From Holophagae bacterium (GTDB lineage Bacteria > Acidobacteriota > Holophagae > Acanthopleuribacterales > Acanthopleuribacteraceae): a stretch of 64,000 nucleotides of DNA. The stretch covers positions 62,001-126,000 of the forward strand of contig JAJCXM010000005.1 of the NCBI GenBank assembly GCA_029263455.1. The letters run 5' to 3'. Below are positions 38,212 through 55,865 of this stretch, piece by piece. The first letter of the stretch is position 1. Every line of letters begins with the position of its first letter. The notes beneath the pieces are model-generated. The model was not told the origin of the DNA. It did not search any database and saw only the letters and a program-made list of their open reading frames with translations. The position numbers and the translations under genes were made by a program.

Positions 38212-38218
38212 GGTTCTT

Positions 38219-39331: not shown

Positions 39332-39503
39332 CTCGTTTGCAGCGTCACTCATTTAGATCGACCCAAGAAACTTGAACAGAAAGCAATCGCGGAGAAACCT
39401 TGACGGTGACGGATATTCACGAGAAGAGCCATGAGCATCCAACTTAATTAATCAATATAGCTCTTGTGCCGTATAGAGTTATATTGAGCGGCGGAGAATC
39501 AAA

Positions 39504-40271: not shown

Positions 40272-40285
40272 GCCAATTCAATCTC

Positions 40286-40708: not shown

Positions 40709-40917
40709 GATTTCCCCCTCTAAAACAACATACAACCTAGCGCTCATCACCGTCAATTTCGCGAAAAGGGCTCAAGTCGATCAAATATTGGATACCAACC
40801 CACTTTGCAATGATTTGGTGTCGCCAATGTAAAGGTCGCACTTGCCAAAGATTGCGTTGTTTCTCAATAAGATCCGCATTTGAATAGAGTCACAGCACAA
40901 CCGAAATGAGGTGACCC

Positions 40918-42360
40918 ATGATGAGTCAACGCTTCGCGCTCAGTCGCCGATGCAATCAGTCCTGGGAACAAATGAAGGGCAACGATGTCGCTCGTTTCTG
41001 TTCCCATTGCCAAAAGAATGTTCACCAAGCTGACCATTTAAACGGTCAACAAGTCCAAGAACTTGTACGCGAAAACGGTCGTTTCTGCGTCCGCTACAGC
41101 CTTAACCTTGAACCACCGTGGGCCTTTCCTAAAGCAAAAACAGAAAAGGGGAAAATGGTCTGGTGGAAACGTTCGGGTCTTTTGTTAGGCTTAAGTTTAT
41201 CGGCCTTGACGCTTTCGGCCCAAACCCCAAGCGCCAGTATACACGGCCTGGTTCGTTCGCTTTCCGATCGCAAGTCAAATCAAAAGGCACACATATCATT
41301 GGTCATGACGAACGGACTCCGTTTGGAAACCAACAGTGACCCCGATGGGCGATTCTCGTTAAATGTCAAGGACCCGGGCCCTTTCCGACTTGACGTCGAA
41401 ATGAAGAACCATGAGCCGTTTTCCATGAGCGGTGTCTTACGGGAGGGCCAGGACCTGACAGTCGAATGGATAGTCCAAAGAGAAATGGAAATTGTCCGCA
41501 TGGGCGTTGCCGCCATCGCTCACCCGGCCACGGATTACGTTTATCACTATGCTGAACGTCGCGGTTGTCCCAGTATTACCAACGACATTCAGCGCGCCGC
41601 TTTAATTGGAGACTTGGATCTTCTGCATGACCTCCAGGAACGCGGTCATGACATTCACGAGACCAACAACTTCCGAGAAAACGCGCTTTTTTTTGCCTTG
41701 CGAGAGCCAGAAATCGCTCGCTACTTGATGGATGAAGGTGTGGATATTCAGTCCCAGTCCTCATTCGGAGTGCCACTGCTGAGTTATGCCCTGTTGACCG
41801 GACAGCCAATTTACCTTGATCTCTTGCATCGGGGCGCCGATCCCAACAAGGCCGATAACGATGGTCGAACACCCATGCACATCGCCGCCATGGGAGGACT
41901 GAAAAGTTTAATTGACCTTGTTGACCATGGCGGTGACGTTTTGGTGAATGACAACCAGGGCATGGGACTGCTTCACTATGCAGCGATCGCGCCGTTTCCG
42001 ATCCGCTCTGACGTGATGACTTATCTGATCAATCGCTACAGTTTCGATATTAACGCCACAGATCAATGGGGCGAGACACCACTAATGAAGGCCGCTCTTC
42101 ACGGTTCCAAAACCTCTGTCCAAATTCTGTTAGAGGCCGGAGCTGATATATACCCGCGTAATAAGTGGAACCAGAATGCCCTGCTCTTGGCCGGATTCAG
42201 CGGAGAACCTGATGTCATTCGACTCCTTGTGCAACATCACGCGGATATCTTAGCCGTGGATTCAGAAGGGCACGCCATTTGGGACCATATGAGTCCCGAT
42301 CTCGCGCGCCGCGTCAAACATGCTCTGCAGGACGTAACCGACATCGCAGCACAACCTTAA
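40918..42360 (+). CDS. Membrane-anchored ankyrin-repeat protein with N-terminal Cys-rich domain
   Basis: 480 residues, ATG preceded by GAGGTGACCC. Residues 1-65 hold a small cysteine-rich domain (RRCNQSWEQM, RFCSHCQKNVHQ, GRFCVRY), probably zinc-binding, as seen in many Bacteroidota and Acidobacteriota membrane proteins. A membrane span follows at about 85-105 (LLLGLSLSALTLSAQTPS). Next is a carboxypeptidase-regulatory-like beta-sandwich (SIHGLVRSLSDRKSNQ, GRFSLNVKD), then about six ankyrin repeats from residue 220 (DGRTPMHIAAMGGLKSLIDL, WGETPLMKAALHGSKTSVQI). The combination implies a cytoplasmic sensor linked to a periplasmic binding array. Partners are unknown. Confidence 0.9.
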   Translation: MMSQRFALSRRCNQSWEQMKGNDVARFCSHCQKNVHQADHLNGQQVQELVRENGRFCVRYSLNLEPPWAFPKAKTEKGKMVWWKRSGLLLGLSLSALTLSAQTPSASIHGLVRSLSDRKSNQKAHISLVMTNGLRLETNSDPDGRFSLNVKDPGPFRLDVEMKNHEPFSMSGVLREGQDLTVEWIVQREMEIVRMGVAAIAHPATDYVYHYAERRGCPSITNDIQRAALIGDLDLLHDLQERGHDIHETNNFRENALFFALREPEIARYLMDEGVDIQSQSSFGVPLLSYALLTGQPIYLDLLHRGADPNKADNDGRTPMHIAAMGGLKSLIDLVDHGGDVLVNDNQGMGLLHYAAIAPFPIRSDVMTYLINRYSFDINATDQWGETPLMKAALHGSKTSVQILLEAGADIYPRNKWNQNALLLAGFSGEPDVIRLLVQHHADILAVDSEGHAIWDHMSPDLARRVKHALQDVTDIAAQP

Positions 42361-42488: not shown

Positions 42489-43448
42489 TCAGATATCCAC
42501 CAAAACGGGTTCCGCTAAATCTTCGAACAACACGGTGCTTAAATAGCGTTCGCCATTACTAGGCACGATTGCAACCACACGGAGACCTACGCCTGTTTGG
42601 TTTTTCTTGGCCAACCGGCGTGCAACCTCGCGCGCAGCATGCACAATCGCTCCCGAACTAATGCCAACCAAGAGACCCTTATCCGTCGCCAAAGATCGAG
42701 CCGTACTTAGAGCATCCTGCAACGCGACCTTTTCCACCGAATCGATAAGACCCACATCCAAAATGGAAGGCACAAATCCGGCGCCAATACCTTGGATCTT
42801 GTGCGGGCCAGGTCCACCGCCACTCAAAACAGGTGAATCGACCGGTTCGACGGCCACTAGTTCAATGTCACTGGACCTCTCTCGCAGGTACTTGCCAGCA
42901 CCGGCAAATGTACCGCCCGTACCGACACCGGCCACAAACCCATTGAGCTGGCCGTCAACGTCACGCCAGATTTCAGGCCCAGTCGTGCGGTAGTGGACCT
43001 CCACATTGGCGGGATTATCGAATTGAAGGCTGCGAAAGCCATTTTCTTCAGCCGCGATTCGGTTTGCTTCAGCAATAGCTCCATTCATGCCTTTAGCACC
43101 GGGGGTCAGAATAAGTTCAGCGCCATACGCGATCAGGATCTTGCGGCGTTCAAGACTCATCGTATCCGGCATGGTCAGCTTTAGACGATAACCCTTCGCT
43201 GCAGCTATCATGGCTAACCCAATCCCCGTATTTCCGCTGGTTGCTTCGACGATCAAGTCGCCTGGCTTGATCTTCCCACGACGCTCAGCATCTTCGATGA
43301 CACCTAAGGCGAGCCTATCCTTTACACTGCCGCCGGGGTTCTGGTACTCCAGTTTCACTACCACTTCAGCTGTGTCCGTGGTTGCACCATCTACTCTAAT
43401 CAATGGCGTATTGCCAATTACCTGATCGATGCGTTCATAAATTTTCAT
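42489..43448 (-). CDS. cysK: Cysteine synthase (O-acetylserine sulfhydrylase A type)
   Basis: 319 residues. Converts O-acetylserine and sulfide into cysteine. The PLP lysine is in NPGGSVKDRLAL (residue about 41), the phosphate-binding loop is EATSGNTGIGLAM, and the glycine loop is VAGVGTGGTFAGAG. The length is typical of CysK. It is the last gene of the minus-strand cys operon, 11 nt after cobA, so sulfide made by the upstream sulfite reductase is used directly. The start is preceded by AAGGAGC. No strong terminator follows; the ankyrin gene ends convergently 128 nt away. Confidence 0.96.
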   Translation of the reverse strand: MKIYERIDQVIGNTPLIRVDGATTDTAEVVVKLEYQNPGGSVKDRLALGVIEDAERRGKIKPGDLIVEATSGNTGIGLAMIAAAKGYRLKLTMPDTMSLERRKILIAYGAELILTPGAKGMNGAIAEANRIAAEENGFRSLQFDNPANVEVHYRTTGPEIWRDVDGQLNGFVAGVGTGGTFAGAGKYLRERSSDIELVAVEPVDSPVLSGGGPGPHKIQGIGAGFVPSILDVGLIDSVEKVALQDALSTARSLATDKGLLVGISSGAIVHAAREVARRLAKKNQTGVGLRVVAIVPSNGERYLSTVLFEDLAEPVLVDI

Positions 43449-43459
43449 TCTTTTGCTCC

Positions 43460-44197
43460 TTACGAAATGTTTAATTGTTGAACTGCTTCTCGCAGTACGG
43501 TCACAGTTGGGCCAACGACCATGGTGGAAGGGGCCTCAAACCTATGGTCTTGTTCAAGGTCACCAAGGGTGCCAATCCACGTCTTGGCGTCGGGTAAGGT
43601 GGCACGGCTAATGACAGCAACGGGCGTATGGCGCGCTCTGCCGTGTGTTCGTAAGTCACGTGCAATTTGACTAAGACGACTAGCACCCATGAGTATAACC
43701 GCCGTATCCACCTGCGCTGCAGCTCTTAGGTCCGCGCTCGGCATGCCTTCTCCAGTTCTCGCTGTAAAAACGCCAAAGGACATGGCTAATCCGCGATAGG
43801 TCAATGGGATGTCCGCAGAAGCGGGCGCCGCTAACACAGAGCTCACGCCGGGGACCACCGAGTAAGCAATGCCGGCAGCTTTTAGGACAGCGATTTCTTC
43901 TCCACCACGACCAAAAACGAAGGGGTCTCCGCCTTTGAGCCGAACCACATGTTGTCCTTTTCGCGCGCACCGAATGAGCAAATCCATGATCGAACCTTGA
44001 GCGATGCTCTGATTTCGCCCAACCCGTTTACCGACGTCAATGCGTTTGCAGTTGATACGGCAAATGTCCAGTATGGCGGGATCAATCAGACGATCATGCA
44101 AAACCACGTCTGCATCTTCCAAGGCATTAACCGCTCTCAAAGTAAGCAGGTCAGGAGCACCTGGACCCGCACCTACCAAGGTCACTTTTCCGCTCAT
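43460..44197 (-). CDS. cobA: Uroporphyrinogen-III C-methyltransferase (SUMT)
   Basis: 245 residues. Transfers two methyl groups from SAM to uroporphyrinogen III, giving precorrin-2 for siroheme. Motifs are VGAGPGAPDLLTLRA at the N-terminus, DVVLHDRLID, VRLKGGDPFVFGRGGEE and VVPGVSSVLAAPASADIPL, all diagnostic of SUMT. The overlap with the siroheme dehydrogenase stop (ATGA) indicates coupled translation. It completes, with the Met8p-like gene, the two-protein equivalent of CysG, and supplies the siroheme of the sulfite reductase encoded just upstream. Confidence 0.96.
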   Translation of the reverse strand: MSGKVTLVGAGPGAPDLLTLRAVNALEDADVVLHDRLIDPAILDICRINCKRIDVGKRVGRNQSIAQGSIMDLLIRCARKGQHVVRLKGGDPFVFGRGGEEIAVLKAAGIAYSVVPGVSSVLAAPASADIPLTYRGLAMSFGVFTARTGEGMPSADLRAAAQVDTAVILMGASRLSQIARDLRTHGRARHTPVAVISRATLPDAKTWIGTLGDLEQDHRFEAPSTMVVGPTVTVLREAVQQLNIS

Positions 44198-44790
44198 GAG
44201 TGCACCTCCAACCCGCGAACTCGCAGTTGTAAATCCGTTAATATGGTTTCAAGGTCAACGCCCGACTCAAGTCGATCTAGGCTATTGCCCACGACAGACC
44301 GCCAAAACACACGACGCTGGTCAAAACTAGACAAGCGTTGCGCTACTGTTGGTCTGGCTGCACCCAGAGCTTCGGCCAATCTCGCCATCGGTTCAGAGAT
44401 CATTTGACCCGCTTTGTCCCTAAGCCATTGAGCCATTCCTGGACTCTTGCCGTTAGACGACACAGCCACAGACAATGCGCCCCGTCGAGCCACAGCTGGG
44501 AAATAGAAATCGCACCGCTGAGGAACATCTGCGACGTTGACCAGCACACCAGCTTCCCGACTAATCCGCTCTGCATGTTCATTTTCGCTAGCCAACTCCG
44601 AAGCTGCGATGACGAAACAAACAAGCTTAAGGTCGTCGATTTGAAGACGGCGCGAATCAGGACCATAACTAAAACGAAAGACATCAAAGCCGGAGCCCTT
44701 TAATAAAGCCGTTTTCTCGCGTGCCATGGCTCCGCCACCGACGACGGCCGCAAGCTTACCGCGCGCCTGCAAGACGATGTGCAAACTCAT
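44194..44790 (-). CDS. Precorrin-2 dehydrogenase / sirohydrochlorin ferrochelatase (Met8p/CysG-N type)
   Basis: 198 residues. An N-terminal NAD-binding fold (KLAAVVGGGAMAREKTALLK) is followed by the family landmarks NVADVPQRCDFYFPAVARRG and LSVAVSSNGKSPGMAQWLRDK. Oxidises precorrin-2 to sirohydrochlorin and inserts iron to make siroheme. The ATG at 44790 has an ideal AAGGAG site although it lies 35 nt inside the sulfite reductase gene, so it is clearly the start. Position between sulfite reductase and cobA fits its job. Confidence 0.92.
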   Translation of the reverse strand: MSLHIVLQARGKLAAVVGGGAMAREKTALLKGSGFDVFRFSYGPDSRRLQIDDLKLVCFVIAASELASENEHAERISREAGVLVNVADVPQRCDFYFPAVARRGALSVAVSSNGKSPGMAQWLRDKAGQMISEPMARLAEALGAARPTVAQRLSSFDQRRVFWRSVVGNSLDRLESGVDLETILTDLQLRVRGLEVHS

Positions 44791-46540
44791 CGTGATACTC
44801 CTTAAAGGGAACGGATTTCGCCATCAAATCGGCTGTTTCTTGATGGCTGCTAAATAATTCGACAAGGCCTTCAGTTCCCAGTCGACGATTGAAGCCGCCT
44901 AGCGTCTCTTGCTCTAAAGCATGTTGTTGGTACGTGCGAAACAACACGTCAAGCAAGGGTGCGACGCGTTCTCTAGGAACAGAACGTAAATACTCTCTGC
45001 CCTCAAGTCGCAGAGGTACACCTTGGTGACGGGCGTCTTCGGTTCCACCAAACTTGAATTGATAACGATTGAGACCTGAGCCCACCAAGCCGATGACTTT
45101 GGTAGCTGGTCTGAAACACTGGCGTTCACATCCAGTGATGCCAATACTTGTGGACAAGTCAGCCCAACCTAAGGCTTCGAGTTGGTCTATTAGTTCAGGC
45201 TCAAATTTTTCGCTATCGGTATAAGCCAATCGGCATGTATCGCGACCAACACAGGATCCTGATTGCAATCGAATAGCCGAATAGGGGCGACCACGGCGTA
45301 ACCCGTAACCAAACGAAGCCAAACTTTGTTCCCAATTATTCTTGTCAGCAGGAGAAAGACCGTGAAATATCAGGTCCTGATTAGCAGTCACCGACAATCT
45401 CACAGGAAACGTCTCCAGCAGGTGACGAACCAAGCTCAGCAGCCTGCCATTAGGGCCGTTATCTACCAGTCGTCCATTTTCAACGAATAACCCATAACTT
45501 AGGGATGACCCCTCCAGCCATCCATGATGTAAGTGGCGCGGACCCGAGTCGAGCTCAATTTTGATCGGCTCCAACGTCACACCTGTTCGCGCCGAAACAT
45601 GTTGCCTGAGCCAGTCAAGACCTTTGTCGCGAACCAGGTACTTCAATCGTGCGTGATGCCGGTTTTCGCGGTCACCCCAATCACGATGCACAGAAACTAT
45701 GCCATCTGCAACAGCTTGTAGTTGATCGATAGGCACGATGCTTAAGGGTTGAGCCAACAACGAAGCCGTAGCTTTACCGAACTTTTCGCCCTGTCCTCCG
45801 CCAACCCAAACCGCCACCCGTTCAACTTTACCTGCCTCCAGCAAAGGCGTGAAGCCCAAGTCATGAGTACGCACCTCCACACAGTTATCTAGTTGCCAGC
45901 GGCCTTCATGTTCAATTAATGAACCCACCGAAATTTTGAATTTTCTGTTCAAGAGCCGTGGTCCATATTCGAATTTGGCGTCCTGCGTTTCCAACGCATT
46001 TGGGTCAATGGCAAAGACTTGAATGAAGGGATCTGTGGGCAACTGAAACCAACCCGCTAGCTGTTGCGCAAACTTCTGCGCATCAAAAAGTGGATGGCGT
46101 CCTAGGGGACAGGCCATCACGTTTCGGACATTATCGCCACAAGCATTGAGGCTCAGCAGCCCGATCTCTGCCGCTGTCCTCACTATTTCAAGTACAGCCG
46201 GTTTCTTTACCCAGTGAAACTGCACGGCCTGTCGCGTGGTTAACCGCAACGAGGCAATACCCTCGGGGTTGACGCTATGTTGTCGGGCTAAATCATCCAG
46301 TACTTTCCAATGCGAAAAATCTAGCGGGCCGCCTCCTGGGATCGCCAATCGGATCATGTACATCCAATCCTTTTCACGACCACTTTGGGCACGATTGAAT
46401 TGCACATAAATGCCATGTGACTTGGATATCTGCTCCAACTGCTCGTCTATTCCAGTTTGGCTGTAATCTCTTAAGGCATCGTCAAGACCGCCGTTTAATC
46501 CCAAATTCTCTTTGACTTGTTCTACATCGATACGGCTCAT
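44756..46540 (-). CDS. Assimilatory sulfite reductase, siroheme/[4Fe-4S] subunit
   Basis: 594 residues; six-electron reduction of sulfite to sulfide. The two ferredoxin-like half-domains are visible, with siroheme-contacting residues in the first (SLRLTTRQAVQFHW, NACGDNVRNVMACPLGRHP). The cluster ligands follow the family pattern: SGSCVGRDTCRLAY and TGCERQCFRP (Cys-x5-Cys and Cys-x3-Cys). CysI and ferredoxin-dependent Sir share this core; no CysJ flavoprotein gene is in the window, so the electron donor is undecided. The 4-nt overlap with cysN and overlap with the siroheme gene place it firmly in the operon. Confidence 0.93.
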   Translation of the reverse strand: MSRIDVEQVKENLGLNGGLDDALRDYSQTGIDEQLEQISKSHGIYVQFNRAQSGREKDWMYMIRLAIPGGGPLDFSHWKVLDDLARQHSVNPEGIASLRLTTRQAVQFHWVKKPAVLEIVRTAAEIGLLSLNACGDNVRNVMACPLGRHPLFDAQKFAQQLAGWFQLPTDPFIQVFAIDPNALETQDAKFEYGPRLLNRKFKISVGSLIEHEGRWQLDNCVEVRTHDLGFTPLLEAGKVERVAVWVGGGQGEKFGKATASLLAQPLSIVPIDQLQAVADGIVSVHRDWGDRENRHHARLKYLVRDKGLDWLRQHVSARTGVTLEPIKIELDSGPRHLHHGWLEGSSLSYGLFVENGRLVDNGPNGRLLSLVRHLLETFPVRLSVTANQDLIFHGLSPADKNNWEQSLASFGYGLRRGRPYSAIRLQSGSCVGRDTCRLAYTDSEKFEPELIDQLEALGWADLSTSIGITGCERQCFRPATKVIGLVGSGLNRYQFKFGGTEDARHQGVPLRLEGREYLRSVPRERVAPLLDVLFRTYQQHALEQETLGGFNRRLGTEGLVELFSSHQETADLMAKSVPFKEYHDEFAHRLAGAR

Positions 46541-48129
46541 CGCTCACCTCCAATTTGCCAATGACGGGCAACCAAGAGCGCCGCCTCTTCGGGACCCACT
46601 AGAGTCTGGTTAATGATAATTTTTCGTTGAATTACTTGGATTTTCTCGGCTCCCTCTTGGGCTTCAAAGCGGATTTCCCAATTTGAATCACGGCTAATTG
46701 ACGGCGGCGCTTTTACCCAAAGTGGCGTGACACTCACTTGTCGAACAGCAGCGTCTAGGCTTTCCGGGTGTTCATCCGCATTGAGGATCAAACTCGCTCG
46801 GCCAGCACGGTTCAAATAGTTGCTGAGCGTGGTGGCAAACGCCAATCGGTTGAATTCCCCCACAATCACTACCGAGTTTGTTTCAATATCTACCAACCCG
46901 TCCTCGGCTGTGACCTGAAGGATCATGCCGGCAGCCAAGGTGTGATTGTCCAATGGGTCGATAAGAATAAAGCTTCCCGTCGTTCGATTATTGGCATAGA
47001 GATCAAGCGCAAGTCGTCGATTGAGATCCAAGCTAACTTTGCCCAGTTCATTGAGGGCCAGGGTTTGGGATTGCTTGCTTTGCAGAGTCTCGACATCTAG
47101 CACGTGATCGATGGCTTGGATTCTGGCTGGAATTAACGAGGTTGCCTGTTTGAGCAATACTTCGCGCCCTTGGCGTAAGGGCTCGGTGTGGAACCAAACG
47201 ATACTGGCACTGATTTGTCGTCCCATTTGCGGACGAGCTGACGGATGCACTAGCAGATCGCCTCGACCTACATCAAGCTCGCGATCCAGGGTGACCGTAA
47301 CCGCTGTATCTGCCTGCACACTCGACCTGTTGCCACGTGCCGTATGAATGCTTGCGACTCGCGCCGATACGTCAGCTGGCAAAACAACCACATCATCGCC
47401 TACAGCCAATTGGCCAGAAGCTACGGTTCCACTAATGCCACGGAATTTTTGGGTTCTGGCGACCAACTGAATAGGCAGTCTCATGGCCTGAGTCTTTTCT
47501 TTCACCCTCACCGGCGTGCTCTGCAAAGCTTCCAGCAGGGTCGGTCCGCGATACCAAGTCATATGCTTTGACGGCGTCACCACACTGTCGCCTCGTAAGG
47601 CCGAGACCGGAATGAAGCGGGCATGCGGCGTACCTAACTCCGACAAGTATCGTTGGAATTGAGCTTCAATACCTGCGAATACAGATTGGCTGAAGTCAAC
47701 TAGATCCATCTTATTTATGACCACGATCAGATGAGGTGTAGCCATGGTTATCGCGATTAAGGCGTGCCGTTTAGACTGTTCTCGAATACCACGGACAGCA
47801 TCAATAAGAATGACCGCACAATCCGACCCAGACGCTGCCGTGGCCATGTTTCGGGTGTATTCAGCATGGCCTGGCGAGTCCGCTAAAACGATACGGCGTT
47901 CAGGCGTATTCAAATACCTAAACGCCACATCAATGGTGATGCCCTGTTCGCGCTCCGCTTTTAGTCCGTCGGTCACACGCGCATAGTCACGTTCGCCGCC
48001 AGGTCCTGTTTCCAACTGCTGCAGTTGGTCAGTGGGGATATTGTGGGTTTCAAATAAGAGACGTCCAATGAGCGTGCTCTTGCCGTCGTCAACACTTCCA
48101 GCTGTTGATACATTTAATACATCTCGCAT
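46537..48129 (-). CDS. cysN: Sulfate adenylyltransferase GTPase subunit with degenerate C-terminal domain
   Basis: 530 residues. GTP hydrolysis by CysN drives APS synthesis by CysD. The GTPase motifs are STAGSVDDGKSTLIGRLLF, DSPGHAEYTRNMATAAS and VVINKMDLVDF. Beta-barrel domains 2 and 3 follow to about residue 415. The last 112 residues (SVVIVGEFNRLAFATTLSNY, LNRAGRASLILNADE) look like the opening strand, P-loop position and first helix of an APS kinase, but the P-loop GxxxxGK is lost. It may therefore be a relic of a CysNC fusion, which is inference. The APS reductase type of cysH in the same operon needs no APS kinase. It begins 9 nt after cysD. Confidence 0.93.
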   Translation of the reverse strand: MRDVLNVSTAGSVDDGKSTLIGRLLFETHNIPTDQLQQLETGPGGERDYARVTDGLKAEREQGITIDVAFRYLNTPERRIVLADSPGHAEYTRNMATAASGSDCAVILIDAVRGIREQSKRHALIAITMATPHLIVVINKMDLVDFSQSVFAGIEAQFQRYLSELGTPHARFIPVSALRGDSVVTPSKHMTWYRGPTLLEALQSTPVRVKEKTQAMRLPIQLVARTQKFRGISGTVASGQLAVGDDVVVLPADVSARVASIHTARGNRSSVQADTAVTVTLDRELDVGRGDLLVHPSARPQMGRQISASIVWFHTEPLRQGREVLLKQATSLIPARIQAIDHVLDVETLQSKQSQTLALNELGKVSLDLNRRLALDLYANNRTTGSFILIDPLDNHTLAAGMILQVTAEDGLVDIETNSVVIVGEFNRLAFATTLSNYLNRAGRASLILNADEHPESLDAAVRQVSVTPLWVKAPPSISRDSNWEIRFEAQEGAEKIQVIQRKIIINQTLVGPEEAALLVARHWQIGGER

Positions 48130-48137
48130 ACGTTCTC

Positions 48138-49052
48138 CTAAAAATAACCTTCTCGTTTTTTGCGCTCCATAGCGTCATCAGAGCCTTGGTCGATGAGCCT
48201 CTGTCCGCGCTCTGAGGTTTTGGCTTGCACGACCTCTTCAACAACTTCACTAAGCGTTTTTGCATTCGAAAGACTGGCTCCAGTGCAGGGCACACAGCCC
48301 AACGTGCGGAAACGGCAAGTCGCCGTCTTTTTGGCCCCGGTCAAACGCTGGCCAATCGCATGTTCGTCAACGGGTAGCCATTGGCCATTCTTTTCCACCA
48401 CCTGACGCTGTTTGGCGTAGTACAGCGGAACGAGTGGGATGTCTTCACGTTGGATGTAGCTCCAAACATCGCGTTCCGTCCAATTCGATAACGGGAAAAC
48501 ACGCACCGATTCGCCTTCTTTGAGACGGCCATTCCACAATTTCCAAAGCTCTGGTCTTTGATTGCGGGGGTCCCATTGACCATGGACGTCACGAAACGAA
48601 AACAACCGTTCCTTGGCACGAGACTTCTCTTCGTCTCGACGGGCGCCACCGATTGCCGCATCAAATTTATGGCTCTTCAGGGTGTCCAGCAGCGGACGTG
48701 TTTTCAAAGCGCCGCAACAGGCATCGGTTCCCCAGTCCAAGGGATTCATGCCCTCCGCAATGGCTTTTTCATTGCGAGCAACAATTAACTCCATCTTGTA
48801 GTGTTGCGCCATCTGATCGCGGAACTTGATCATTAAAGGGAACTTATAGCCGGTGTCCACGTGTAACATCGGAAACGGGATCGGCGCTGGTGCAAAGGCT
48901 TTGCTTGCCAAATGCAGCAGCACTGACGAGTCCTTACCTATCGAGTAGAGCAATACCGGTTTCTGATACTCCGCAGCCACTTCTCTGAAAATGTGAATGC
49001 TCTCATCCTCAAGTACATCAAGGTGAGATTGTGTCTGTGGAAACATGTCCAT
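48138..49052 (-). CDS. cysD: Sulfate adenylyltransferase subunit 2
   Basis: 304 residues. Forms APS from ATP and sulfate together with CysN. The PP-loop is VLLYSIGKDSSVLLHLASKAF at about residues 33-52. Further family motifs are HVDTGYKFPLMIKFRDQM, GGARRDEEKSRAKERLFSFR and the C-terminal LGCVPCTGA. The length is typical (about 300). The start overlaps the DUF2061 gene by 35 nt; GAGGT lies a few bases before ATG 49052, and ATG 49046 is the alternative. Translation is probably coupled to DUF2061. Confidence 0.96.
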   Translation of the reverse strand: MDMFPQTQSHLDVLEDESIHIFREVAAEYQKPVLLYSIGKDSSVLLHLASKAFAPAPIPFPMLHVDTGYKFPLMIKFRDQMAQHYKMELIVARNEKAIAEGMNPLDWGTDACCGALKTRPLLDTLKSHKFDAAIGGARRDEEKSRAKERLFSFRDVHGQWDPRNQRPELWKLWNGRLKEGESVRVFPLSNWTERDVWSYIQREDIPLVPLYYAKQRQVVEKNGQWLPVDEHAIGQRLTGAKKTATCRFRTLGCVPCTGASLSNAKTLSEVVEEVVQAKTSERGQRLIDQGSDDAMERKKREGYF

Positions 49053-49251
49053 TTACCTCATAACCATTTTTTGTTTTTAGTCGTAGCCAGGCTTGTTCGT
49101 GCAACATGAACAAGCCGATTTTGACAAGAGCCTCGGCGCCACCGATCGAGATAGAAACACCTAGGTCTCCCGTCACAAGATAGGCAATAAGCGCTGTGGT
49201 TAGGGTGGCGACGATGCGCCAGCTAATAGCCTTTATGGCAAGATGAAACAC
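49018..49251 (-). CDS. DUF2061 small membrane protein
   Basis: 77 residues: AIKAISWRIVATLTTALIAY and GVSISIGGAEALVKIGLFML form two membrane helices, separated by LVTGDLG. WR near the start and HEQAW after the second helix are DUF2061 hallmarks. This family often sits inside sulfate-activation operons; its role there is unproven and could involve anion transport or anchoring of the sulfurylase. Here it begins 3 nt after cysH and overlaps cysD by 35 nt. Confidence 0.85.
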   Translation of the reverse strand: MFHLAIKAISWRIVATLTTALIAYLVTGDLGVSISIGGAEALVKIGLFMLHEQAWLRLKTKNGYEVNGHVSTDTISP

Positions 49252-49254
49252 GGC

Positions 49255-49992
49255 TTAGACCACCAACGGATTGGCAGCAGGACGTCCGTTATGCCAATGC
49301 AATCCACATTCACTGACCGACGTCTGTTCCCACCACCAACGGCCAGCCCGCTCCGATTCACCAGGTTGAATAGCGCGTGTGCAGGGTTCACAGCCAATCG
49401 AGGGGTAGCCTTGATCGTGTAAGCGGTTAATGGGCGTCCCACGATCGTCCAGAAAAGCGCGAACCATGCGAGACTCCCAATCCCACAATGGGCTGATCTT
49501 GACGAGACCCAACGAGTCGTCCCAGCTGATCGGCTCTATTCCTCCGCGGGCTTCACTTTGTGATTGGCGAAGCCCCACAACCCATGCTTTGGCACCATGC
49601 AATGCACGTCGCAAGGGCAACACCTTACGAATGAAGCAGCACTCGCGGCGGGCGGCGACGCTCTCTCTAAAAGCGAACGGGCCCGATGCATGTAAATAGG
49701 GCTCAAGGTGATCGGGATCCGGAGAAAGGGTTCTGACCGACAGTCCCAGTTCCTTGCGGGTTCGATCAAGCACCTCAAGCGTTTGCTCATGAAGCCGTCC
49801 CGTATCCAATGTAATCACATCAATAGGCAGGCCTAAATCGCTAATAACTTGGGCAATGACTTGGTCTTCTAAGCCTAACGAACTAGCGAAGGTGAGCTGG
49901 TTAGCAAAACGCTCGGACGCCCAACCCAGCAACGTACCTATGTCAGAGTGGCGGTGTTCATGGTTCCATTTTGAAATCTCATTTTGAGACAT
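49255..49992 (-). CDS. cysH: APS-type adenylylsulfate reductase (CysH family)
   Basis: 245 residues from the ATG at 49992, which follows AAGGAGG with correct spacing; an upstream frame extension lacks a site. Reduces APS (or PAPS) to sulfite with thioredoxin. The nucleotide-binding PP-loop is FASSLGLEDQVIAQ. The cluster pattern CysCys (RRECCFIRK) and CxxC (IGCEPCTRA) shows a [4Fe-4S] enzyme, which indicates APS rather than PAPS as substrate. The catalytic Cys is in SECGLHW near the C-terminus. It is the first structural gene after the cysteine-leader attenuator. Confidence 0.96.
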   Translation of the reverse strand: MSQNEISKWNHEHRHSDIGTLLGWASERFANQLTFASSLGLEDQVIAQVISDLGLPIDVITLDTGRLHEQTLEVLDRTRKELGLSVRTLSPDPDHLEPYLHASGPFAFRESVAARRECCFIRKVLPLRRALHGAKAWVVGLRQSQSEARGGIEPISWDDSLGLVKISPLWDWESRMVRAFLDDRGTPINRLHDQGYPSIGCEPCTRAIQPGESERAGRWWWEQTSVSECGLHWHNGRPAANPLVV

Positions 49993-50102: not shown

Positions 50103-50140
50103 GCGGGAGTGGTTAACTCTTTACAAGGAAGGCCAAATAC

Positions 50141-50176
50141 AAAAAACGCCTTCCTCGGCTAGGACCGTGGAAGGCG
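50141..50176 (-). terminator. Attenuator terminator upstream of cysH
   Basis: On the minus strand CGCCTTCC (50176-50169) pairs with GGAAGGCG (50154-50147). An inner CGG/CCG extends the stem around a 6-nt loop, and six T follow (50146-50141). It lies 23 nt after the stop of the Cys-rich leader peptide. Its 5' arm overlaps a segment (50173-50178, CGCGCC) that can instead pair with GGCGCG inside the leader coding region (50206-50211). The two structures are mutually exclusive. Confidence 0.88.
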
Positions 50177-50199
50177 CGTATTCTTTGCAGAAAGGCGGT

Positions 50200-50307
50200 C
50201 TAAGCCGCGCCAACCTCGTCCATAGTACAAGGACAACAACAGCAACAACACATCTGCAACGCGTTCGCGCTCGTCAAAGGAAAAGGGATGTGTTTGTTCA
50301 TGTTCAT
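50200..50307 (-). CDS. Cysteine-rich leader peptide of the cysH operon attenuator
   Basis: A 35-codon gene too short for ordinary gene calling. The ATG at 50307 is preceded by GGAG with a 7-nt spacer. Residues 20-25 are six consecutive Cys (TGT/TGC), then Pro and a seventh Cys, within LQMCCCCCCPCTMDEVGAA. The stop TAG is at 50200-50202. The peptide has no signal sequence or known fold; its purpose seems to be measuring charged tRNA-Cys. When Cys is scarce the ribosome should stall, freeing bases 50211-50206 to pair with 50178-50173 and block the terminator. When Cys is ample the ribosome reaches the stop, covers that segment and the terminator forms. A metal-binding micropeptide is a less likely alternative. 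Confidence 0.85.
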   Translation of the reverse strand: MNMNKHIPFPLTSANALQMCCCCCCPCTMDEVGAA

Positions 50308-50330
50308 CAGGTCACTCCGTAATGGATCAA

Positions 50331-50359
50331 AAGATACGTTTATGAATTCAAGTTGTCAA
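50331..50359 (-). promoter_or_regulatory. Sigma-70 promoter of the cysH attenuator transcript
   Basis: TTGACA (minus strand, 50359-50354) and TATCTT (50336-50331) are spaced by exactly 17 nt. The -35 is full consensus and overlaps the stop codon of the upstream aspartokinase gene. Transcription should begin near 50324, about 17 nt before the leader ATG, so the cys genes form their own unit behind the methionine genes. Confidence 0.75.
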
Positions 50360-52734
50360 GTAGAGGCGGCCAAGGCCTCGTGAAAAGACTCTGTATATCG
50401 GGAGCGGCTCTCCATAATGCCCCGCCTGGCCGCTATTTTTATCAGGTCAGACAGCACACCGGAGGCCGCAGCATCGGGACCTATCCCAGGTCCCGCCAAT
50501 ACTAACGGTCTGGTCAATTTGTGGGTACCCACTTCCAAGTACATGTCACCAGGTTCCACTCCGGTCAATGGGTCTCCCGGCTTTAGCGATTCCAGCCGCA
50601 AGAGGATCGAACCATTTGCGCTCATCGTTCCAACATAGGCCAATGAACGGCCACGTTCCACCGCGTGCGTCACACGGCGTTCAATAAAGTCGTCTAACGT
50701 ATGTATCACATCCAGAAATTCATCAAAATCAAGGTCAAGCATCCATGCAGGAATAATCGATTCCGAACTGCAACGTTCCATTTCTGCTTGAAACCCACAC
50801 TCACGAGCTAGCAAGATCCAGCGTTGAACAGCGTGCGTTCCCGCCAGATCAATTCTCGGGTCAGGCTGCGCAATCCCGGTATCAATGGCTTCAGCAATCA
50901 AATCAGAAAAACGCTGACCCTTCGCGAGTCGTGCCCAAAGCCACGATTGAAAACCGCACAAGATACCCCGGATAGAAACCACCGAATCGCCCGTTTCCAT
51001 CACGTGACGGATGCGATCGATGGCCCAAACCGCACCATTAACGGCGCCCTCACACATTAAGTAGGTGCCGTGACGTTCTTGGGCCTGTTGGATGGCCTCG
51101 TAAATAGACCAATCACCGCTAAGCAGGGCACGATTTGCCGTAATGACATCAAAGCCTTGTTCCAGCCAAATCGGATAGTCCGCATTCTCGTGTCCTTCAC
51201 GAACATCGACAATCACTTTGTGACGTCCGGGTGCCACTTGGCTTTGACGTAACAGAGAACTAATTGAGGTAGATTGTGCATGTGATTGAAACCAAGGCTC
51301 CCAGTCACTGCCAATCCATCCATCTGGGTTCCATATCATCTGGGCTGCACCGACCACCGCTTGTAACGAAAAAAGAGGGCCCGCTTGGCGATCACGTGCT
51401 TCAGCCAGCGACTCAACCAGCGATGCCGCCGTAGGACCATCGCCTAAGAGCAGAATTTGTAATCCATCTTCATTAGACAAGTGATCATGGACGCGACGAA
51501 CCACCTCACTCAAATCTGATGCGCCTATGACGGCTGCAATACAAGAGTCGCTTGCAAGCCAGCGCACAGGCTGAGCATTTAGTCCTTCAATGAACGCCTT
51601 TGTCCTTGCTGAGACTTCTTTTGCTGGTGACACCAGAAACAAGCCCAGCTGTTCCGTATCCACATCAATGAGTTGTGTTGTTTCGCAATCGCGGAGCAGA
51701 CTAAGCGTTTCCGCTAAGTCTTTATCGTGGACCAAGAGTTCGATTTGTGTATTCACAATTGACCAAGCTAGCAGCTGTCTATTGCCAAACAAATTTATCA
51801 ATTTCTCTGGCGCATCATGTTGGACATGTATAAGCGCCAGATGTTTGGATGCCGTTACAACGGCATGGTTTTGGGAAACGTCGTTTCGTACTTCAGTGCC
51901 GGGCACATGTGGACGAAAACTATTGGCTAAATACAAAGGCAGGCCCAAGCGCATCACAGGACCAACCGCATCAGGATGAACGACACCGGTTCCCAATCGA
52001 GCGAGTGTGTCTAAACCCCGATAACTGATTTGCGTTACCGGCCGAGCGCTCGGAATTAGGTCGGGATCTGCCGTCAATACACCATCAGTATCCGACCAAA
52101 TGGTTAGCTGTTTGGCTTCGATCGCTGCCGCAACGATGGAGGCAGTATAGTCACTGCCGTTACGGCCTAACGTGACCGCTTCGCCAGCTTCATTACCAGC
52201 GACGAATCCTTGCACAAGCACCATGGACTCAGCTGCCGCGTAAATATTGCGTTGAATGGCAGCATAGGTCTCAGACTCAATAACATCCGAATACTGATCC
52301 ACAAGAATCATGTGCCTAGCGTCTAGACAAACAGCATCATGACCGTCACGACGAAGGGCAGCATGCAATAGCCAAGACGACCAATATTCTCCCCTGGAGA
52401 TCCAACCACTGCTCGCAGCTCTTTCTTCTAGCGCGGCACCCAACTGGGCGAATTCCAGCTGCCATTCTGCACTTACAGGCACATCAAGGGCCGCCATCAA
52501 ACCCTTTATACGGCTTATCAATCCCTGGTAACGCTTACGCCATGGTTGCTCTGTGCTAGCTAATGCGAAGAGATCAATAAGTGTGTCTGTGACCCCGCCT
52601 GGCGCTGAAACCACGACAATTCTCTGTTCCGATTTGGGGACAGATAGTGCGGCAACAACACGCAGGAAGCCGTCAGCCTCAGCGAGGCTAGATCCACCAT
52701 ACTTGTGCACAATTCGAAGGCGTTGACTGTTCAT
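50356..52734 (-). CDS. Bifunctional aspartokinase / homoserine dehydrogenase
   Basis: 792 residues from the ATG at 52734, 4 nt after the metB stop. Makes aspartyl phosphate and, with a separate semialdehyde dehydrogenase, homoserine. The kinase begins VHKYGGSSLAEADGFLRVV with GRNGSDYTASIVAAAIEA at about 220, and ACT-like regulatory domains span about 300-450. The homoserine dehydrogenase has ILLLGDGPTAASLVESL (NAD fold), VDVREGHEN, TANRALLSGDW and DLAGTHAVQRWILLA. ThrA and MetL share this fusion (about 810 residues). Co-location with metF, metX and metB suggests the methionine-linked isoform. The -35 of the cys promoter lies across its stop. Confidence 0.93.
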   Translation of the reverse strand: MNSQRLRIVHKYGGSSLAEADGFLRVVAALSVPKSEQRIVVVSAPGGVTDTLIDLFALASTEQPWRKRYQGLISRIKGLMAALDVPVSAEWQLEFAQLGAALEERAASSGWISRGEYWSSWLLHAALRRDGHDAVCLDARHMILVDQYSDVIESETYAAIQRNIYAAAESMVLVQGFVAGNEAGEAVTLGRNGSDYTASIVAAAIEAKQLTIWSDTDGVLTADPDLIPSARPVTQISYRGLDTLARLGTGVVHPDAVGPVMRLGLPLYLANSFRPHVPGTEVRNDVSQNHAVVTASKHLALIHVQHDAPEKLINLFGNRQLLAWSIVNTQIELLVHDKDLAETLSLLRDCETTQLIDVDTEQLGLFLVSPAKEVSARTKAFIEGLNAQPVRWLASDSCIAAVIGASDLSEVVRRVHDHLSNEDGLQILLLGDGPTAASLVESLAEARDRQAGPLFSLQAVVGAAQMIWNPDGWIGSDWEPWFQSHAQSTSISSLLRQSQVAPGRHKVIVDVREGHENADYPIWLEQGFDVITANRALLSGDWSIYEAIQQAQERHGTYLMCEGAVNGAVWAIDRIRHVMETGDSVVSIRGILCGFQSWLWARLAKGQRFSDLIAEAIDTGIAQPDPRIDLAGTHAVQRWILLARECGFQAEMERCSSESIIPAWMLDLDFDEFLDVIHTLDDFIERRVTHAVERGRSLAYVGTMSANGSILLRLESLKPGDPLTGVEPGDMYLEVGTHKLTRPLVLAGPGIGPDAAASGVLSDLIKIAARRGIMESRSRYTESFHEALAAST

Positions 52735-52738
52735 TGGT

Positions 52739-53911
52739 CTATCTGCTTCCGACAGCAACGGCATGTGGAACATCTAGCGCGCGAGTTATGTCAGAGAGAA
52801 GATCACGCACATCTTCAATACCCACCGACAATCGAATCAACGAATCGCCAATGCCAGCGCGAATACGACTTTCCGGGTCCATGGCTGCATGGGTCATCGT
52901 GGCGGGATGCGCAACCAAGCTTTCTACTCCACCCAATGATTCAGCTAACGAGAAATGAGACAGGCGTTTAACAAAATGCGCTACGTCACGTACATCGCCG
53001 TCTAGTTCGAAACTGATCATGCCACCGAATCCTGACTGCTGTCGGACGGCAACTTCATGACCGGGATGATCAAAGAAACCAGGGAAGTGGACTTTGCGAA
53101 CTCGTCCATGGCTTCGCAATGCCTGCGAAACCATCAATGCGTTTTCGCAATGGATTCGCATACGCGCTGAAAGCGTGCGTAATCCGCGTAATGTCAGGAA
53201 ACTGTCAAAGGGCGCGCCTGTGATACCCAGGCAGTTAGCCCACCAAATCAGCTCTTCATGTAGTTCGGGCGTCGCAGCAATCACAGCTCCGCCAACAACG
53301 TCACTGTGACCATTGATGTATTTTGTGGTCGAGTGGACCACGATATCAGCACCCAACGGGATCGGCTGCTGAAGTTCAGGCGACAAGAACGTATTGTCGA
53401 CAACCACCAAAGAGCCGTTTTCGTGTGCGATTTCGCTTACGAGGCGGATGTCCGTAACTCGAAGTAGAGGGTTGCTTGGCGTCTCCACCCATACAAGCTT
53501 CACGTCGTCATTGAGTTCTGATCGCAAAATTGCTTCGTTTGTCAAATCAACAAACTTAACCTTGAAATGACTCTTCTTGGCCAAATGAGTAAACAGCCTA
53601 TGGGTTCCACCATAACAATCATGGGAAGCGAGAATATGTTCTCCTGGCTGTAACAGATGGACGCAGAGTGTAATGGCCGCCATCCCCGTTGCCGTTATAA
53701 CCGCGCCATAACCCGCTTCAAGTTCAGCCAGCGTTTCGGCTAACACGTCTCTTGTGGGATTGCCGGATCGGGTGTAGTCATAAGTTCGCTTTTGATCGAA
53801 GCCTGCGAAGGTGTAGTTGCTCGACAGGAATATCGGAGGGATAACGGCGCCATGCTGACTATCCGTTTCAATTCCGTGACGTACAGCAATAGTAGAACGT
53901 CTAGCAGTCAT
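52739..53911 (-). CDS. metB: Cystathionine gamma-synthase/lyase family PLP enzyme
   Basis: 390 residues. Condenses an O-acylhomoserine with cysteine (or sulfide) through a gamma-replacement. Motifs are YDYTRSGNPTRDVLAETLAE, the PLP Lys in VHSTTKYINGHSDVVGG, and SLGGVESLVAHPATMTHAAM. The trans-sulfuration family includes MetB, MetC, MetZ and CGL; position between metX and the aspartokinase favours MetB or MetZ, but the sequence alone does not separate them. It overlaps the metX stop by 11 nt. Confidence 0.9.
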   Translation of the reverse strand: MTARRSTIAVRHGIETDSQHGAVIPPIFLSSNYTFAGFDQKRTYDYTRSGNPTRDVLAETLAELEAGYGAVITATGMAAITLCVHLLQPGEHILASHDCYGGTHRLFTHLAKKSHFKVKFVDLTNEAILRSELNDDVKLVWVETPSNPLLRVTDIRLVSEIAHENGSLVVVDNTFLSPELQQPIPLGADIVVHSTTKYINGHSDVVGGAVIAATPELHEELIWWANCLGITGAPFDSFLTLRGLRTLSARMRIHCENALMVSQALRSHGRVRKVHFPGFFDHPGHEVAVRQQSGFGGMISFELDGDVRDVAHFVKRLSHFSLAESLGGVESLVAHPATMTHAAMDPESRIRAGIGDSLIRLSVGIEDVRDLLSDITRALDVPHAVAVGSR

Positions 53912-54941
53912 GTTGCCTCCAATGACGTATGCCCCGGAAAACCGTATTCGGATTCGGGCATATGATGTGTTTCAAAATGGCGTTTAGGGTCTCAGGTTCT
54001 TTAAGGAAAGCATCATGACCGTACATCGATGAGAATTCGTACATATCAGCTTCTGCATTGATTTCATTGATCAAACTACGCAACTGTTGGATCGGAACTA
54101 ATTGATCTTCTTCCACGCCAATAAAACTGACGGGCACACGAATAGATTGAGGATCCACAAAGTGACGGTCGATGGCATCCGACAATTGCGTAAATTGTTC
54201 GACTGAAAACCTTTTGCTAAATTGCTGCCCACAATAGTTTAAGTAAGAGGTTATGGCTTGGCGATCATGTTCAACCGAATCCGACGAGAATCGACGATTT
54301 AACTCTGATGGGGTTCGATAGGTTGTCATGGCCAATGCGCGAGCCAGTGAGAGAGGTAGAGCTGTTTCATTGGCTGAAGTTTCACGCGCAATCGTTTGCT
54401 GAATCCAACGCAGTGCCATCGCGTGCGGTGTACTACGATGAGCGGCTGATACTGCCACGACCCGCTTCACTGCATGTGGGAACAGGCTGGCAAAAGACAA
54501 TCCAACCATGCCACCAAACGAGCAACCTACCCAAGTGTCAATTTGACTAACACCCAACGCTTTAATGACAGCGTAAACGGCACGAGCTTGGTCTTGTGTG
54601 GTCAAGAAAGGCGAGTCGAAATCTGGGGCCAGGTCGCCGAAAGCTGTAGATCCGCCCAATCCGCCAAGGAAATCGATTCCCAGTAATCGATATCGTTGGG
54701 GATTAAGCGTACCCTCAGTTCCGGCGACCGATGACCACCAGCCCCGTTCGGCATAGGAGGTCGCCGAACGGTGCGAGGAGATACCGCCCATCACTAAAAT
54801 TAATGGTGCCGATTTGGGGCCAACACATTCATAAGCAACTTCGATTTGATGCGCAATCGGACCACATGCGAGCTTGATGGAGGCTGCTACTTTATCTTGC
54901 TCGAAGACAATCGATGGTTGGTTTTGAGGCACTGTAGTCAT
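53901..54941 (-). CDS. metX: Homoserine O-acyltransferase (MetX)
   Basis: 346 residues, alpha/beta-hydrolase fold. Activates homoserine by O-acylation. The nucleophile is in WVGCSFGGMVGLSFASLFPH, the oxyanion region in VMGGISSHRSA, the Asp in GVEEDQLVP and the His in MYGHDAFLKEPE. The nucleophile context GCSFGG differs from the GGSMGG of classical acetyl-CoA MetX and resembles the succinyl-CoA-using branch, so the acyl donor is open. It starts 11 nt after metF and overlaps metB. Confidence 0.9.
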   Translation of the reverse strand: MTTVPQNQPSIVFEQDKVAASIKLACGPIAHQIEVAYECVGPKSAPLILVMGGISSHRSATSYAERGWWSSVAGTEGTLNPQRYRLLGIDFLGGLGGSTAFGDLAPDFDSPFLTTQDQARAVYAVIKALGVSQIDTWVGCSFGGMVGLSFASLFPHAVKRVVAVSAAHRSTPHAMALRWIQQTIARETSANETALPLSLARALAMTTYRTPSELNRRFSSDSVEHDRQAITSYLNYCGQQFSKRFSVEQFTQLSDAIDRHFVDPQSIRVPVSFIGVEEDQLVPIQQLRSLINEINAEADMYEFSSMYGHDAFLKEPETLNAILKHIICPNPNTVFRGIRHWRQHDC

Positions 54942-54952
54942 TGTCGAATCCC

Positions 54953-55810
54953 TTAAGCAGAAACGCGTTGCCGTTTAACGGGTCGAATACCCAAAGCGTG
55001 GCAAATGGCATAGGTCATATCGAAGCGGTTGAGGGTGTAAAAATGAAAGGCCTCAACACCTTCTCGTTTTAGATCTCGCACTTGCTCGATCGCGTAGTTG
55101 GCTGCAAGTAGGCGGAAGGTCTCGGGATCGTCGTTAAGACCCTCAAAGGTTTGTTCCACAATCAAAGGGACACTGGCCCCGCAGCGACTGGCAAAGGCAC
55201 GCAATTTGTCGAGACGCGTAATCGGTAAGATTCCTGGGATGATTTCGGATTGGATCCCGGCGCGAACGCAGCGATCACGGAAACGCAGGAAGGCATCGTT
55301 TTCAAAGAAAAACTGTGTGATCGCACGTTTCGCGCCGGAATTCAGTTTGCGTTTGAGATTGTCTATATCAAACGCAGAGCTAGGAGCTTCAGGATGTGTT
55401 TCAGGATAGGCGGCGACGGTGATATCAAAATCAGCGACATCGCGCGCTAGCCGCACCAAATCCGAAGCATAAGTAAGTTCAGGGTGAATCTTGAGACCGT
55501 CATGCTGATCGCCACGCACCGCAACCAGCTTCCGTATGCCCTGTGCCCAGTAACGGCGCAGCGTATGACGCACCGAATCGGGCGTTTCACCGACACAAGT
55601 CAAATGGGGAGCGGCAGGTAAGGTCGTTAGTTGGTGGACGCGTTCGATAACGGCATGTGTTCGTGCCCGAGTCATAGGATCAGCGCCGTAGGTAACAGAC
55701 ACAAATTGGGGTTGCACTTGGGCGAGCGTAAAGACAGAGCGCCACAGGGTTGCTTCCATACGTGCATTCTTGGGTGGAAAAAACTCAAAAGACACACGGC
55801 ACTGGCTCAC
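54953..55810 (-). CDS. metF: Methylenetetrahydrofolate reductase
   Basis: 285 residues with a GTG start preceded by GGAGGTGAAGC. Reduces 5,10-methylene-THF to 5-methyl-THF, the methyl donor for homocysteine. FAD-barrel motifs are SFEFFPPKNARMEATLW, FVSVTYGADPMTRART, PHLTCVGETPDSVR and KRAITQFFFENDAFLRF, with GVEAFHFYTLNRFDM at the C-terminus. The length is typical. It is the first gene of the methionine operon, directly behind a promoter with dyads that look like an operator. Confidence 0.95.
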   Translation of the reverse strand: MSQCRVSFEFFPPKNARMEATLWRSVFTLAQVQPQFVSVTYGADPMTRARTHAVIERVHQLTTLPAAPHLTCVGETPDSVRHTLRRYWAQGIRKLVAVRGDQHDGLKIHPELTYASDLVRLARDVADFDITVAAYPETHPEAPSSAFDIDNLKRKLNSGAKRAITQFFFENDAFLRFRDRCVRAGIQSEIIPGILPITRLDKLRAFASRCGASVPLIVEQTFEGLNDDPETFRLLAANYAIEQVRDLKREGVEAFHFYTLNRFDMTYAICHALGIRPVKRQRVSA

Positions 55811-55824
55811 GCTTCACCTCCTAC

Positions 55825-55865
55825 AGGATGACCGCATCCTACAGAAAGACATACGCACATGTCAA
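55825..55865 (-). promoter_or_regulatory. metF promoter with two overlapping dyad operators
   Basis: On the minus strand TTGACA (55865-55860) and TAGGAT (55841-55836) are spaced by 18 nt. A palindrome GACAT-N6-ATGTC (55848-55863) covers the spacer and part of the -35. A second, AGGATG-N4-CATCCT (55825-55840), covers the -10 and likely start site and ends a few bases before the ribosome site. Such nesting is typical of repressor operators; the regulator is unknown. Confidence 0.55.

What the first reader, a model, noticed from the sequence alone, without database searches (positions are those of the whole stretch)
50141..50359. Poly-cysteine leader peptide and transcription attenuator controlling the cysH sulfate-assimilation operon
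Seen directly: TTGACA-17-TATCTT promoter (50359-50331), GGAG site, a 35-codon peptide with six consecutive Cys codons plus Pro-Cys (50307-50200), an intrinsic terminator with six T (50176-50141), and an antiterminator pair GGCGCG (50211-50206) with CGCGCC (50178-50173) that excludes the terminator. A ribosome stalled at any Cys codon would leave 50211-50206 free, while one at the stop would cover it. Known: trp/his-type attenuation works this way, and Cys-rich leader peptides have been reported before sulfur genes in mycobacteria, acting mainly on translation. Inference: this operon (cysH, DUF2061, cysD, cysN, sir, siroheme, cobA, cysK) is switched by tRNA-Cys charging through transcription attenuation. 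I know of no description of such a Cys attenuator in this lineage.
Basis: partly seen in the sequence, partly recalled or inferred. Interest (0 to 1): 0.92.

Follow-up and report, generated by a model that had tools for sequence, protein, structure and literature searches.

The report
Cysteine-sensing switch before sulfur genes
An acidobacterium appears to switch its sulfate-to-cysteine genes on only when cysteine runs short, by letting a ribosome stall on a run of cysteine codons and so block a transcription stop signal; the same arrangement, with different sequences, recurs in many other families of the phylum, where this kind of control had no described example that I could find.

Summary
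The reading as a trp/his-type attenuator sensing Cys-tRNA holds computationally. All five other family members with cysH (including what I infer to be Sulfidibacter corallicola and Acanthopleuribacter pedis) have a poly-Cys uORF and intrinsic terminator before cysH, with diverged sequence. Across the phylum (Acidobacteriota) at least nine more families show Cys-run uORFs before the cysH operon, nearly all followed by a strong terminator 18-73 nt past the stop. The Cys signal is absent on the opposite strand (17/81 vs 0/81). Strand 2, inside the uORF, pairs with its own terminator's 5' arm better than with other leaders' arms (permutation p about 1.5e-4). Ribosome-position folding gives the same pattern as E. 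coli trp, thr and leu controls. No expression data exist, and at equilibrium the terminator wins, so antitermination must be kinetic, as in those controls. Prior art: mycobacterial poly-Cys leaders (no terminator) and Rhodobacterales cysS (CC codons plus terminator). Hence a new member of a known kind, but the first assigned in Acidobacteriota that I could find and widespread there. A second poly-Cys leader, without terminator, precedes chaC in three relatives.

The parts
50331..50359 (-). sigma-70-type promoter TTGACA-17-TATCTT, overlapping the stop codon of the upstream metL-like gene
   Evidence: TTGAC-type promoters at the same relative place read in most f1 and several f19 leaders
50315..50318 (-). 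Shine-Dalgarno GGAG of the leader ORF
   Evidence: CCATTACGGAGTGACCTGATGA is identical in the same-genus genome G001
50200..50307 (-). 35-codon leader ORF with six tandem Cys codons plus Pro-Cys (Cys sensor)
   Evidence: poly-Cys uORF at the same place in all five other family members with cysH
50227..50250 (-). regulatory codons TGT TGT TGC TGT TGT TGT CCT TGT
   Evidence: the uORF differs from that of G001 by in-frame indels of 3 and 15 nt
50206..50218 (-). antiterminator 5' strand (strand 2), inside the last uORF codons
   Evidence: duplex -17.1 kcal/mol with the terminator 5' arm; pairing 0.55 with ribosome at first Cys codon vs 0.05 at stop
50195..50208 (-). short hairpin GCGG-CTTAGA-CCGC around the uORF stop codon; would compete with strand 2
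   Evidence: in the MFE fold; similar stop-codon hairpins readable in G001, G005, G006 (by eye)
50147..50178 (-). terminator hairpin (strands 3 and 4); its 5' arm 50178-50166 is also the antiterminator 3' strand
   Evidence: -21.7 kcal/mol, 0/40 shuffles as good; terminators in all six family leaders
50141..50146 (-). T6 tract of the intrinsic terminator
49255..49992 (-). cysH, phosphoadenylyl/adenylyl-sulfate reductase, first structural gene
   Evidence: NF002537 8.2e-72, above cut-off
49018..49251 (-). DUF2061 small membrane protein
   Evidence: PF09834 2.3e-18
48138..49052 (-). cysD, sulfate adenylyltransferase subunit
   Evidence: TIGR02039 6.8e-134
46537..48129 (-). cysN, sulfate adenylyltransferase GTPase subunit
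   Evidence: TIGR02034 1.8e-144
44756..46540 (-). sulfite reductase hemoprotein
   Evidence: NF010029 9.1e-100 (below curated cut-off), PF01077 8.6e-33
44194..44790 (-). siroheme synthase N-terminal domain protein (precorrin-2 dehydrogenase type)
   Evidence: TIGR01470 2.1e-31
43460..44197 (-). cobA, uroporphyrinogen-III C-methyltransferase
   Evidence: TIGR01469 8.1e-80
42489..43448 (-). cysK, cysteine synthase A
   Evidence: TIGR01139 5.5e-126

Best explanation
A ribosome-mediated transcription attenuator of the trp/his class that senses charged tRNA-Cys. RNA polymerase starts just downstream of the promoter at 50359-50331 and a ribosome starts the leader ORF. With enough Cys-tRNA the ribosome runs to the stop codon, covers strand 2 (50218-50206), the terminator 50178-50147 forms and transcription stops at the T run before cysH. 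When Cys-tRNA is scarce the ribosome stalls in the Cys run; strand 2 is free and pairs with the terminator's 5' arm before the 3' arm is made, so polymerase reads into cysH-DUF2061-cysD-cysN-sir-cysG-cobA-cysK. Shown: all sequence elements, their conservation, the kept complementarity, and the position-dependent folding. Inferred: translation of the uORF, stalling on Cys starvation, kinetic antitermination, and the effect on the operon.
For: Elements present. Same architecture in 6/6 family members with cysH and in further families of the phylum. Cys-specific: 17/81 phylum loci with >=4 Cys in 8 residues (10 with >=5) on the sense strand against 0/81 on the reverse complement; other residues tested 0-3. 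Terminator found in 24 of 27 candidate Cys leaders tested (L132 and L077 are the same sequence), 18-73 nt after the uORF stop, almost never matched by shuffles. Strand 2 x terminator 5' arm: combined shuffle p 0.004 (f1) and 8e-5 (ten others, one per family for most); native pairing beats swapped pairing, p 1.5e-4, and beats the 3' arm in 10 of 12 distinct leaders, p 0.005. 5' arm paired upstream 0.55 with ribosome at first Cys, 0.50 at last, 0.05 at stop; E. coli trp, thr, leu give 0.60-0.75 vs 0.00-0.01. Conserved blocks between G000 and G001 are SD+start, Cys/strand 2/stop, and terminator; uORF indels are 3 and 15 nt. In G004 the nearest large upstream ORF is divergent, so the terminator there is unlikely to be that of an upstream operon.
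Against: No transcript, ribosome-profiling or starvation data. Full-length equilibrium folding favours the terminator even with a stalled ribosome (0.97), so control must be kinetic (the same is true of the E. coli controls). Antiterminator pairing in G000 alone is only nominal (77 of 1000 shuffles as good), and weak in some families (f61, L163). The same-class family f2 shows no such leader in the cysH loci examined.
Confidence: 0.86

Rival explanations
1. Translational (or Rho-dependent) attenuation as described for mycobacterial poly-Cys uORFs: stalling changes access to the cysH ribosome-binding site or to Rho, and the hairpin is incidental.
For: Poly-Cys leaders before cys operons in Mycobacterium lack terminators (PMC1262725) and act by translation attenuation (PMC13236596 citing Canestrari 2020). 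In G000 the cysH SD is mostly paired in the full fold.
Against: Strong intrinsic terminators in 24 of 27 candidate leaders. SD partners differ among six relatives and the SD/post-terminator pairing is no better than shuffles.
Confidence: 0.07
2. The Cys-rich peptide is a small functional protein (metal or thiol binding, or trans-acting like peTrpL) and the terminator is an ordinary one.
For: The peptide end CPCTxDEVGAA is conserved in G001, and CCCCCCCRPTRPTGGSG in f19.
Against: Conserved residues coincide with RNA strand 2 and are absent in other family members; N-termini are not conserved; the recurrence of a Cys run plus terminator at the same gene in unrelated sequences is not explained.
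Confidence: 0.04
3. The hairpin simply ends the upstream metF-metX-metB-metL transcript, and the Cys uORF is chance.
For: The promoter overlaps the stop codon of the upstream metL-like gene, so upstream transcripts would also end here.
Against: Six-of-six conservation with differing upstream genes, a divergent large ORF upstream in G004, and phylum-wide recurrence.
Confidence: 0.01

Closest known systems
E. coli trp/thr/leu-type leader-peptide transcription attenuators
   Same: Promoter, SD, short ORF with codons of the end product, strand 2 at the ORF end, antiterminator versus intrinsic terminator, biosynthetic operon; the same ribosome-position folding pattern
   Different: Senses Cys; controls sulfate assimilation; in Acidobacteriota
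uORFC-8-2 motif, Rhodobacterales cysS (PMC8632094)
   Same: Cys-codon uORF followed by an intrinsic terminator; proposed Cys-tRNA sensing by ribosome stalling
   Different: Two Cys codons at about positions 14-15, before cysS, in alpha-proteobacteria; here runs of 3-8 Cys codons before cysH operons in another phylum
Mycobacterial/actinobacterial poly-Cys leader ORFs (PMC1262725; Canestrari 2020, 10.1111/mmi.14498, not readable here)
   Same: Poly-Cys uORF before cys operons
   Different: Those have no terminator (2005 prediction), and in mycobacteria are reported as leaderless and acting on translation; here an SD, a 5' UTR and an intrinsic terminator

Membership tests
Ribosome-mediated (trp/his-type) transcription attenuator | short ORF with start and SD, rich in codons for the operon's end product | tested here: met
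   CCCCCCPC, SD GGAG, cysK-ending operon; translation itself not shown
Ribosome-mediated (trp/his-type) transcription attenuator | intrinsic terminator between leader ORF and first gene | tested here: met
   -21.7 kcal/mol plus T6, 0/40 shuffles
Ribosome-mediated (trp/his-type) transcription attenuator | antiterminator exclusive with the terminator, available only when the ribosome stalls on regulatory codons | tested here: met
   E. coli controls; computed only
Ribosome-mediated (trp/his-type) transcription attenuator | read-through rises on starvation for the amino acid | not testable with these tools
   needs RNA data
Mycobacterial poly-Cys leaderless uORF attenuators | leaderless start (no SD or 5' UTR) | tested here: not met
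   GGAG and a short 5' UTR judged by promoter position
Mycobacterial poly-Cys leaderless uORF attenuators | no intrinsic terminator; translational output | tested here: not met
   terminator present and conserved; output itself not testable here
uORFC-8-2 (Rhodobacterales cysS) | located upstream of cysS, CC at codons 14-15 | tested here: not met
   upstream of cysH, Cys codons 20-25 and 27
Any Rfam family (leader RNAs, riboswitches, T-box) | match above gathering score | tested here: not met
   0 matches in the window

The most novel reading that the evidence does not exclude
Acidobacteriota use a phylum-wide Cys-tRNA-sensing leader-peptide regulon: a fast-evolving transcription attenuator before the sulfate-assimilation operon, in sequence-unrelated forms across at least ten families, plus in some lineages a second poly-Cys leader without terminator before the glutathione-degrading chaC gene, so that cysteine supply is controlled by ribosome stalling.
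Probability: 0.55. Interest if true: 0.68.

Novelty: new member of a known kind. Interest (0 to 1): 0.58.

Why it matters
Leader-peptide attenuation is well known in Proteobacteria and Actinobacteria and has been predicted in Firmicutes; [quoted passage not shown] Here a defined signal (Cys-tRNA), target (sulfate assimilation) and mechanism can be proposed across the phylum. The same logic appears with sequence-unrelated stems, which makes a good test case for how attenuators persist or re-arise. It also bears on a regulatory question: Cys leaders in mycobacteria are reported to work on translation, these apparently on transcription. It is testable in two cultured relatives (Sulfidibacter corallicola, Acanthopleuribacter pedis).

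Tried and rejected
Translational SD sequestration: no consistent partner for the cysH SD in six relatives, and post-terminator anti-SD pairing no better than shuffles. Rfam families: none. A wider Cys regulon in the window genome: no second poly-Cys leader; the other two Cys5-pattern sites show no short Cys-run uORF. Cys leaders in other phyla near cysH: 2 of 79 mostly non-acidobacterial loci, both weak. One alignment used wrong coordinates and was redone. Canestrari 2020 was not held, so its content is cited second-hand. Covariation counting was not pursued: within families the stems vary too little, and between families they are not alignable, so shuffles and arm swaps were used instead.

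Full report
OBSERVATION. The minus strand from 50359 to 50141 reads exactly as described. TTGACA-17-TATCTT is followed by GGAG, a 35-codon ORF MNMNKHIPFPLTSANALQMCCCCCCPCTMDEVGAA*, a GC-rich hairpin and six T. The 176-nt leader folds more stably than all 200 shuffles (z -3.35). The six tandem Cys codons are exceptional: the pattern TGYTGYTGYTGYTG has three sites in the 6.2-Mb genome, and the other two show no short Cys-run uORF. Downstream genes were checked against NCBIfam and Pfam: cysH, DUF2061, cysD, cysN, sulfite reductase, siroheme dehydrogenase domain, cobA, cysK. cysH begins at 49992.

WHERE IT COMES FROM. The window lies in genome G000. One genome of the same phylum (G237) is identical over 1,111 of 1,111 31-mers to a named Acidobacteria MAG. 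The family members include genomes of 11,786,365 bp and about 10.8 Mb, which fit Sulfidibacter corallicola M133 (11.79 Mb) and Acanthopleuribacter pedis (10.85 Mb) (PMC8841776). I therefore place the genome in Acanthopleuribacteraceae, Acidobacteriota; this is an inference from sizes and kinship.

CONSERVATION IN THE FAMILY. Of six other genomes in the family sample (G001-G006), five have cysH. All five have a poly-Cys uORF in front of it: CCCPC (G001), CCCCFCCCC (G004), CCMGCCCCC (G003), CCCCCCC (G005), CPCCCCCCC (G006). Each is followed by a hairpin with a T run 19-25 nt after the uORF stop and lies roughly 250-455 nt before cysH; most have a readable TTGAC-type promoter. Terminator sequences differ (CGCCTTCC.., AAGCCTTTCTCG.., AAGCCGACCTCA..). 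Against the same-genus genome the conserved blocks are SD+start, Cys run/strand 2/stop, and terminator, and the uORF indels are 3 and 15 nt. In G004 the nearest large upstream ORF is on the opposite strand, so the hairpin there is unlikely to be the terminator of an upstream operon.

CONSERVATION IN THE PHYLUM. A search of 396 phylum genomes for the cysH family gave loci whose 600 nt upstream were scanned. On the sense strand 17 of 81 have a short ORF with at least four Cys in eight residues (10 have five or more). On the reverse complement none do, and ten other residues give 0-3. A few of the 17 (L136, L149, L160) are weak. The family f19 has the leader in 7 of 7 testable genomes (CCCCCCCRPTRPTGGSG), and single or paired cases occur in f11, f13, f17, f28, f34, f39, f44, f58 and f61 (f17, f28, f34 and one f39 case have three Cys in eight or lie beyond the 600-nt scan, and were found by the wider scans). 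Of 27 candidate Cys leaders tested (L132 and L077 are the same sequence), 24 have an intrinsic terminator 18-73 nt after the uORF stop, at energies almost never reached by shuffles. In L159 and L132 a DUF2061-like gene stands between terminator and cysH (by eye). The class-mate family f2 shows no such leader.

ANTITERMINATOR. In every leader with a terminator the best pairing to the terminator's 5' arm comes from inside the uORF, after the Cys run. Single-leader significance is modest (77/1000 shuffles for G000). Combined, p is 0.004 for the six family members (not fully independent) and 8e-5 for ten others, one per family for most. Across 12 distinct leaders native strand-2/arm pairs are stronger than swapped ones (permutation p 1.5e-4) and stronger than pairing with the 3' arm in 10 of 12 (p 0.005). 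So complementarity is kept while sequence turns over.

RIBOSOME POSITION. With a ribosome at the first Cys codon the 5' arm is paired upstream with probability 0.55 before the 3' arm exists; with the ribosome at the stop it is 0.05. E. coli trp, thr and leu, treated identically, give 0.62, 0.75 and 0.60 against 0.00-0.01. In G000 and these controls the complete terminator wins at equilibrium (0.92-0.98), so the switch must be kinetic. A small hairpin around the stop codon (50208-50195) would compete with strand 2, and analogues are readable in G001, G005 and G006.

ALTERNATIVES. Translational control as in mycobacteria was tested: the cysH SD is often paired, but with different partners among the relatives and not above shuffles. 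A functional Cys-rich peptide or a chance uORF near an unrelated terminator does not explain the recurrence.

LITERATURE. Cys-run leader ORFs before actinobacterial cys operons were predicted in 2005, without terminators (PMC1262725), and later shown to act in mycobacteria (Canestrari 2020, seen only as cited in PMC13236596, which calls it translation attenuation). A Rhodobacterales cysS motif with two Cys codons and a terminator was proposed in 2021 (PMC8632094). A 2010 survey says almost no predicted attenuator in Acidobacteria had an assigned function (PMC2965389). Searches of the held library found no Cys attenuator in Acidobacteriota; absence there is not proof.

VERDICT. Observation confirmed; interpretation supported by comparison and folding, but not by experiment. 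It works like, and computationally qualifies as, a trp/his-type attenuator with Cys as signal: a new member of a known kind, notable for its phylum-wide spread.

Noticed in passing
L234, L235, L236 (G006:C19:104.6k, G005:C29:158.5k, G003:C1:1.276M): A second poly-Cys uORF (..LQAG-CCCRNLCCCCCCSC*; CCCSMCCCCCSC* in G003) lies about 85-110 nt (stop to start) before a ChaC-like gene (PF04752, 7e-48; glutathione breakdown) in three relatives, with no intrinsic terminator; in G005 and G006 the uORF start GTGAAATGAAC can pair 9-11 bp with GTTCATTTC just after the stop. G000 and G001 have no match to this gene.
   Followed up: partly
window 50195-50208; L083, L086, L087: A small hairpin encloses the leader ORF's stop codon in G000, G001, G005 and G006 with changed stem sequences; it could sequester strand 2 after ribosome release.
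   Followed up: no
window 50113-50146 and the same place in L085-L087, L114, L121, L122, L126, L147, L156: The terminators share a two-part T tract (TTTTTTGTTTTT) followed by GGGC/GGCA and a pyrimidine stretch, even between families; cause unknown, perhaps a general property of terminators in the phylum.
   Followed up: no
window 50356-55810 (-): Directly upstream is a methionine cluster (MTHFR, alpha/beta hydrolase of metX type, cystathionine gamma-synthase, aspartokinase/homoserine dehydrogenase) with a promoter-like TTGACA-18-TAGGAT at 55865; its last stop codon overlaps the leader promoter, so the attenuator's terminator may also end that transcript.
   Followed up: partly
L159, L132: In some families a DUF2061-like gene (by eye) is the first gene after the attenuator, before cysH; its link with sulfate assimilation is unexplained.
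   Followed up: no
window 38132-42360 (+): DUF3179, DUF4344 putative metallopeptidase and an ankyrin-repeat protein are encoded beyond the end of the cys operon on the other strand.
   Followed up: no
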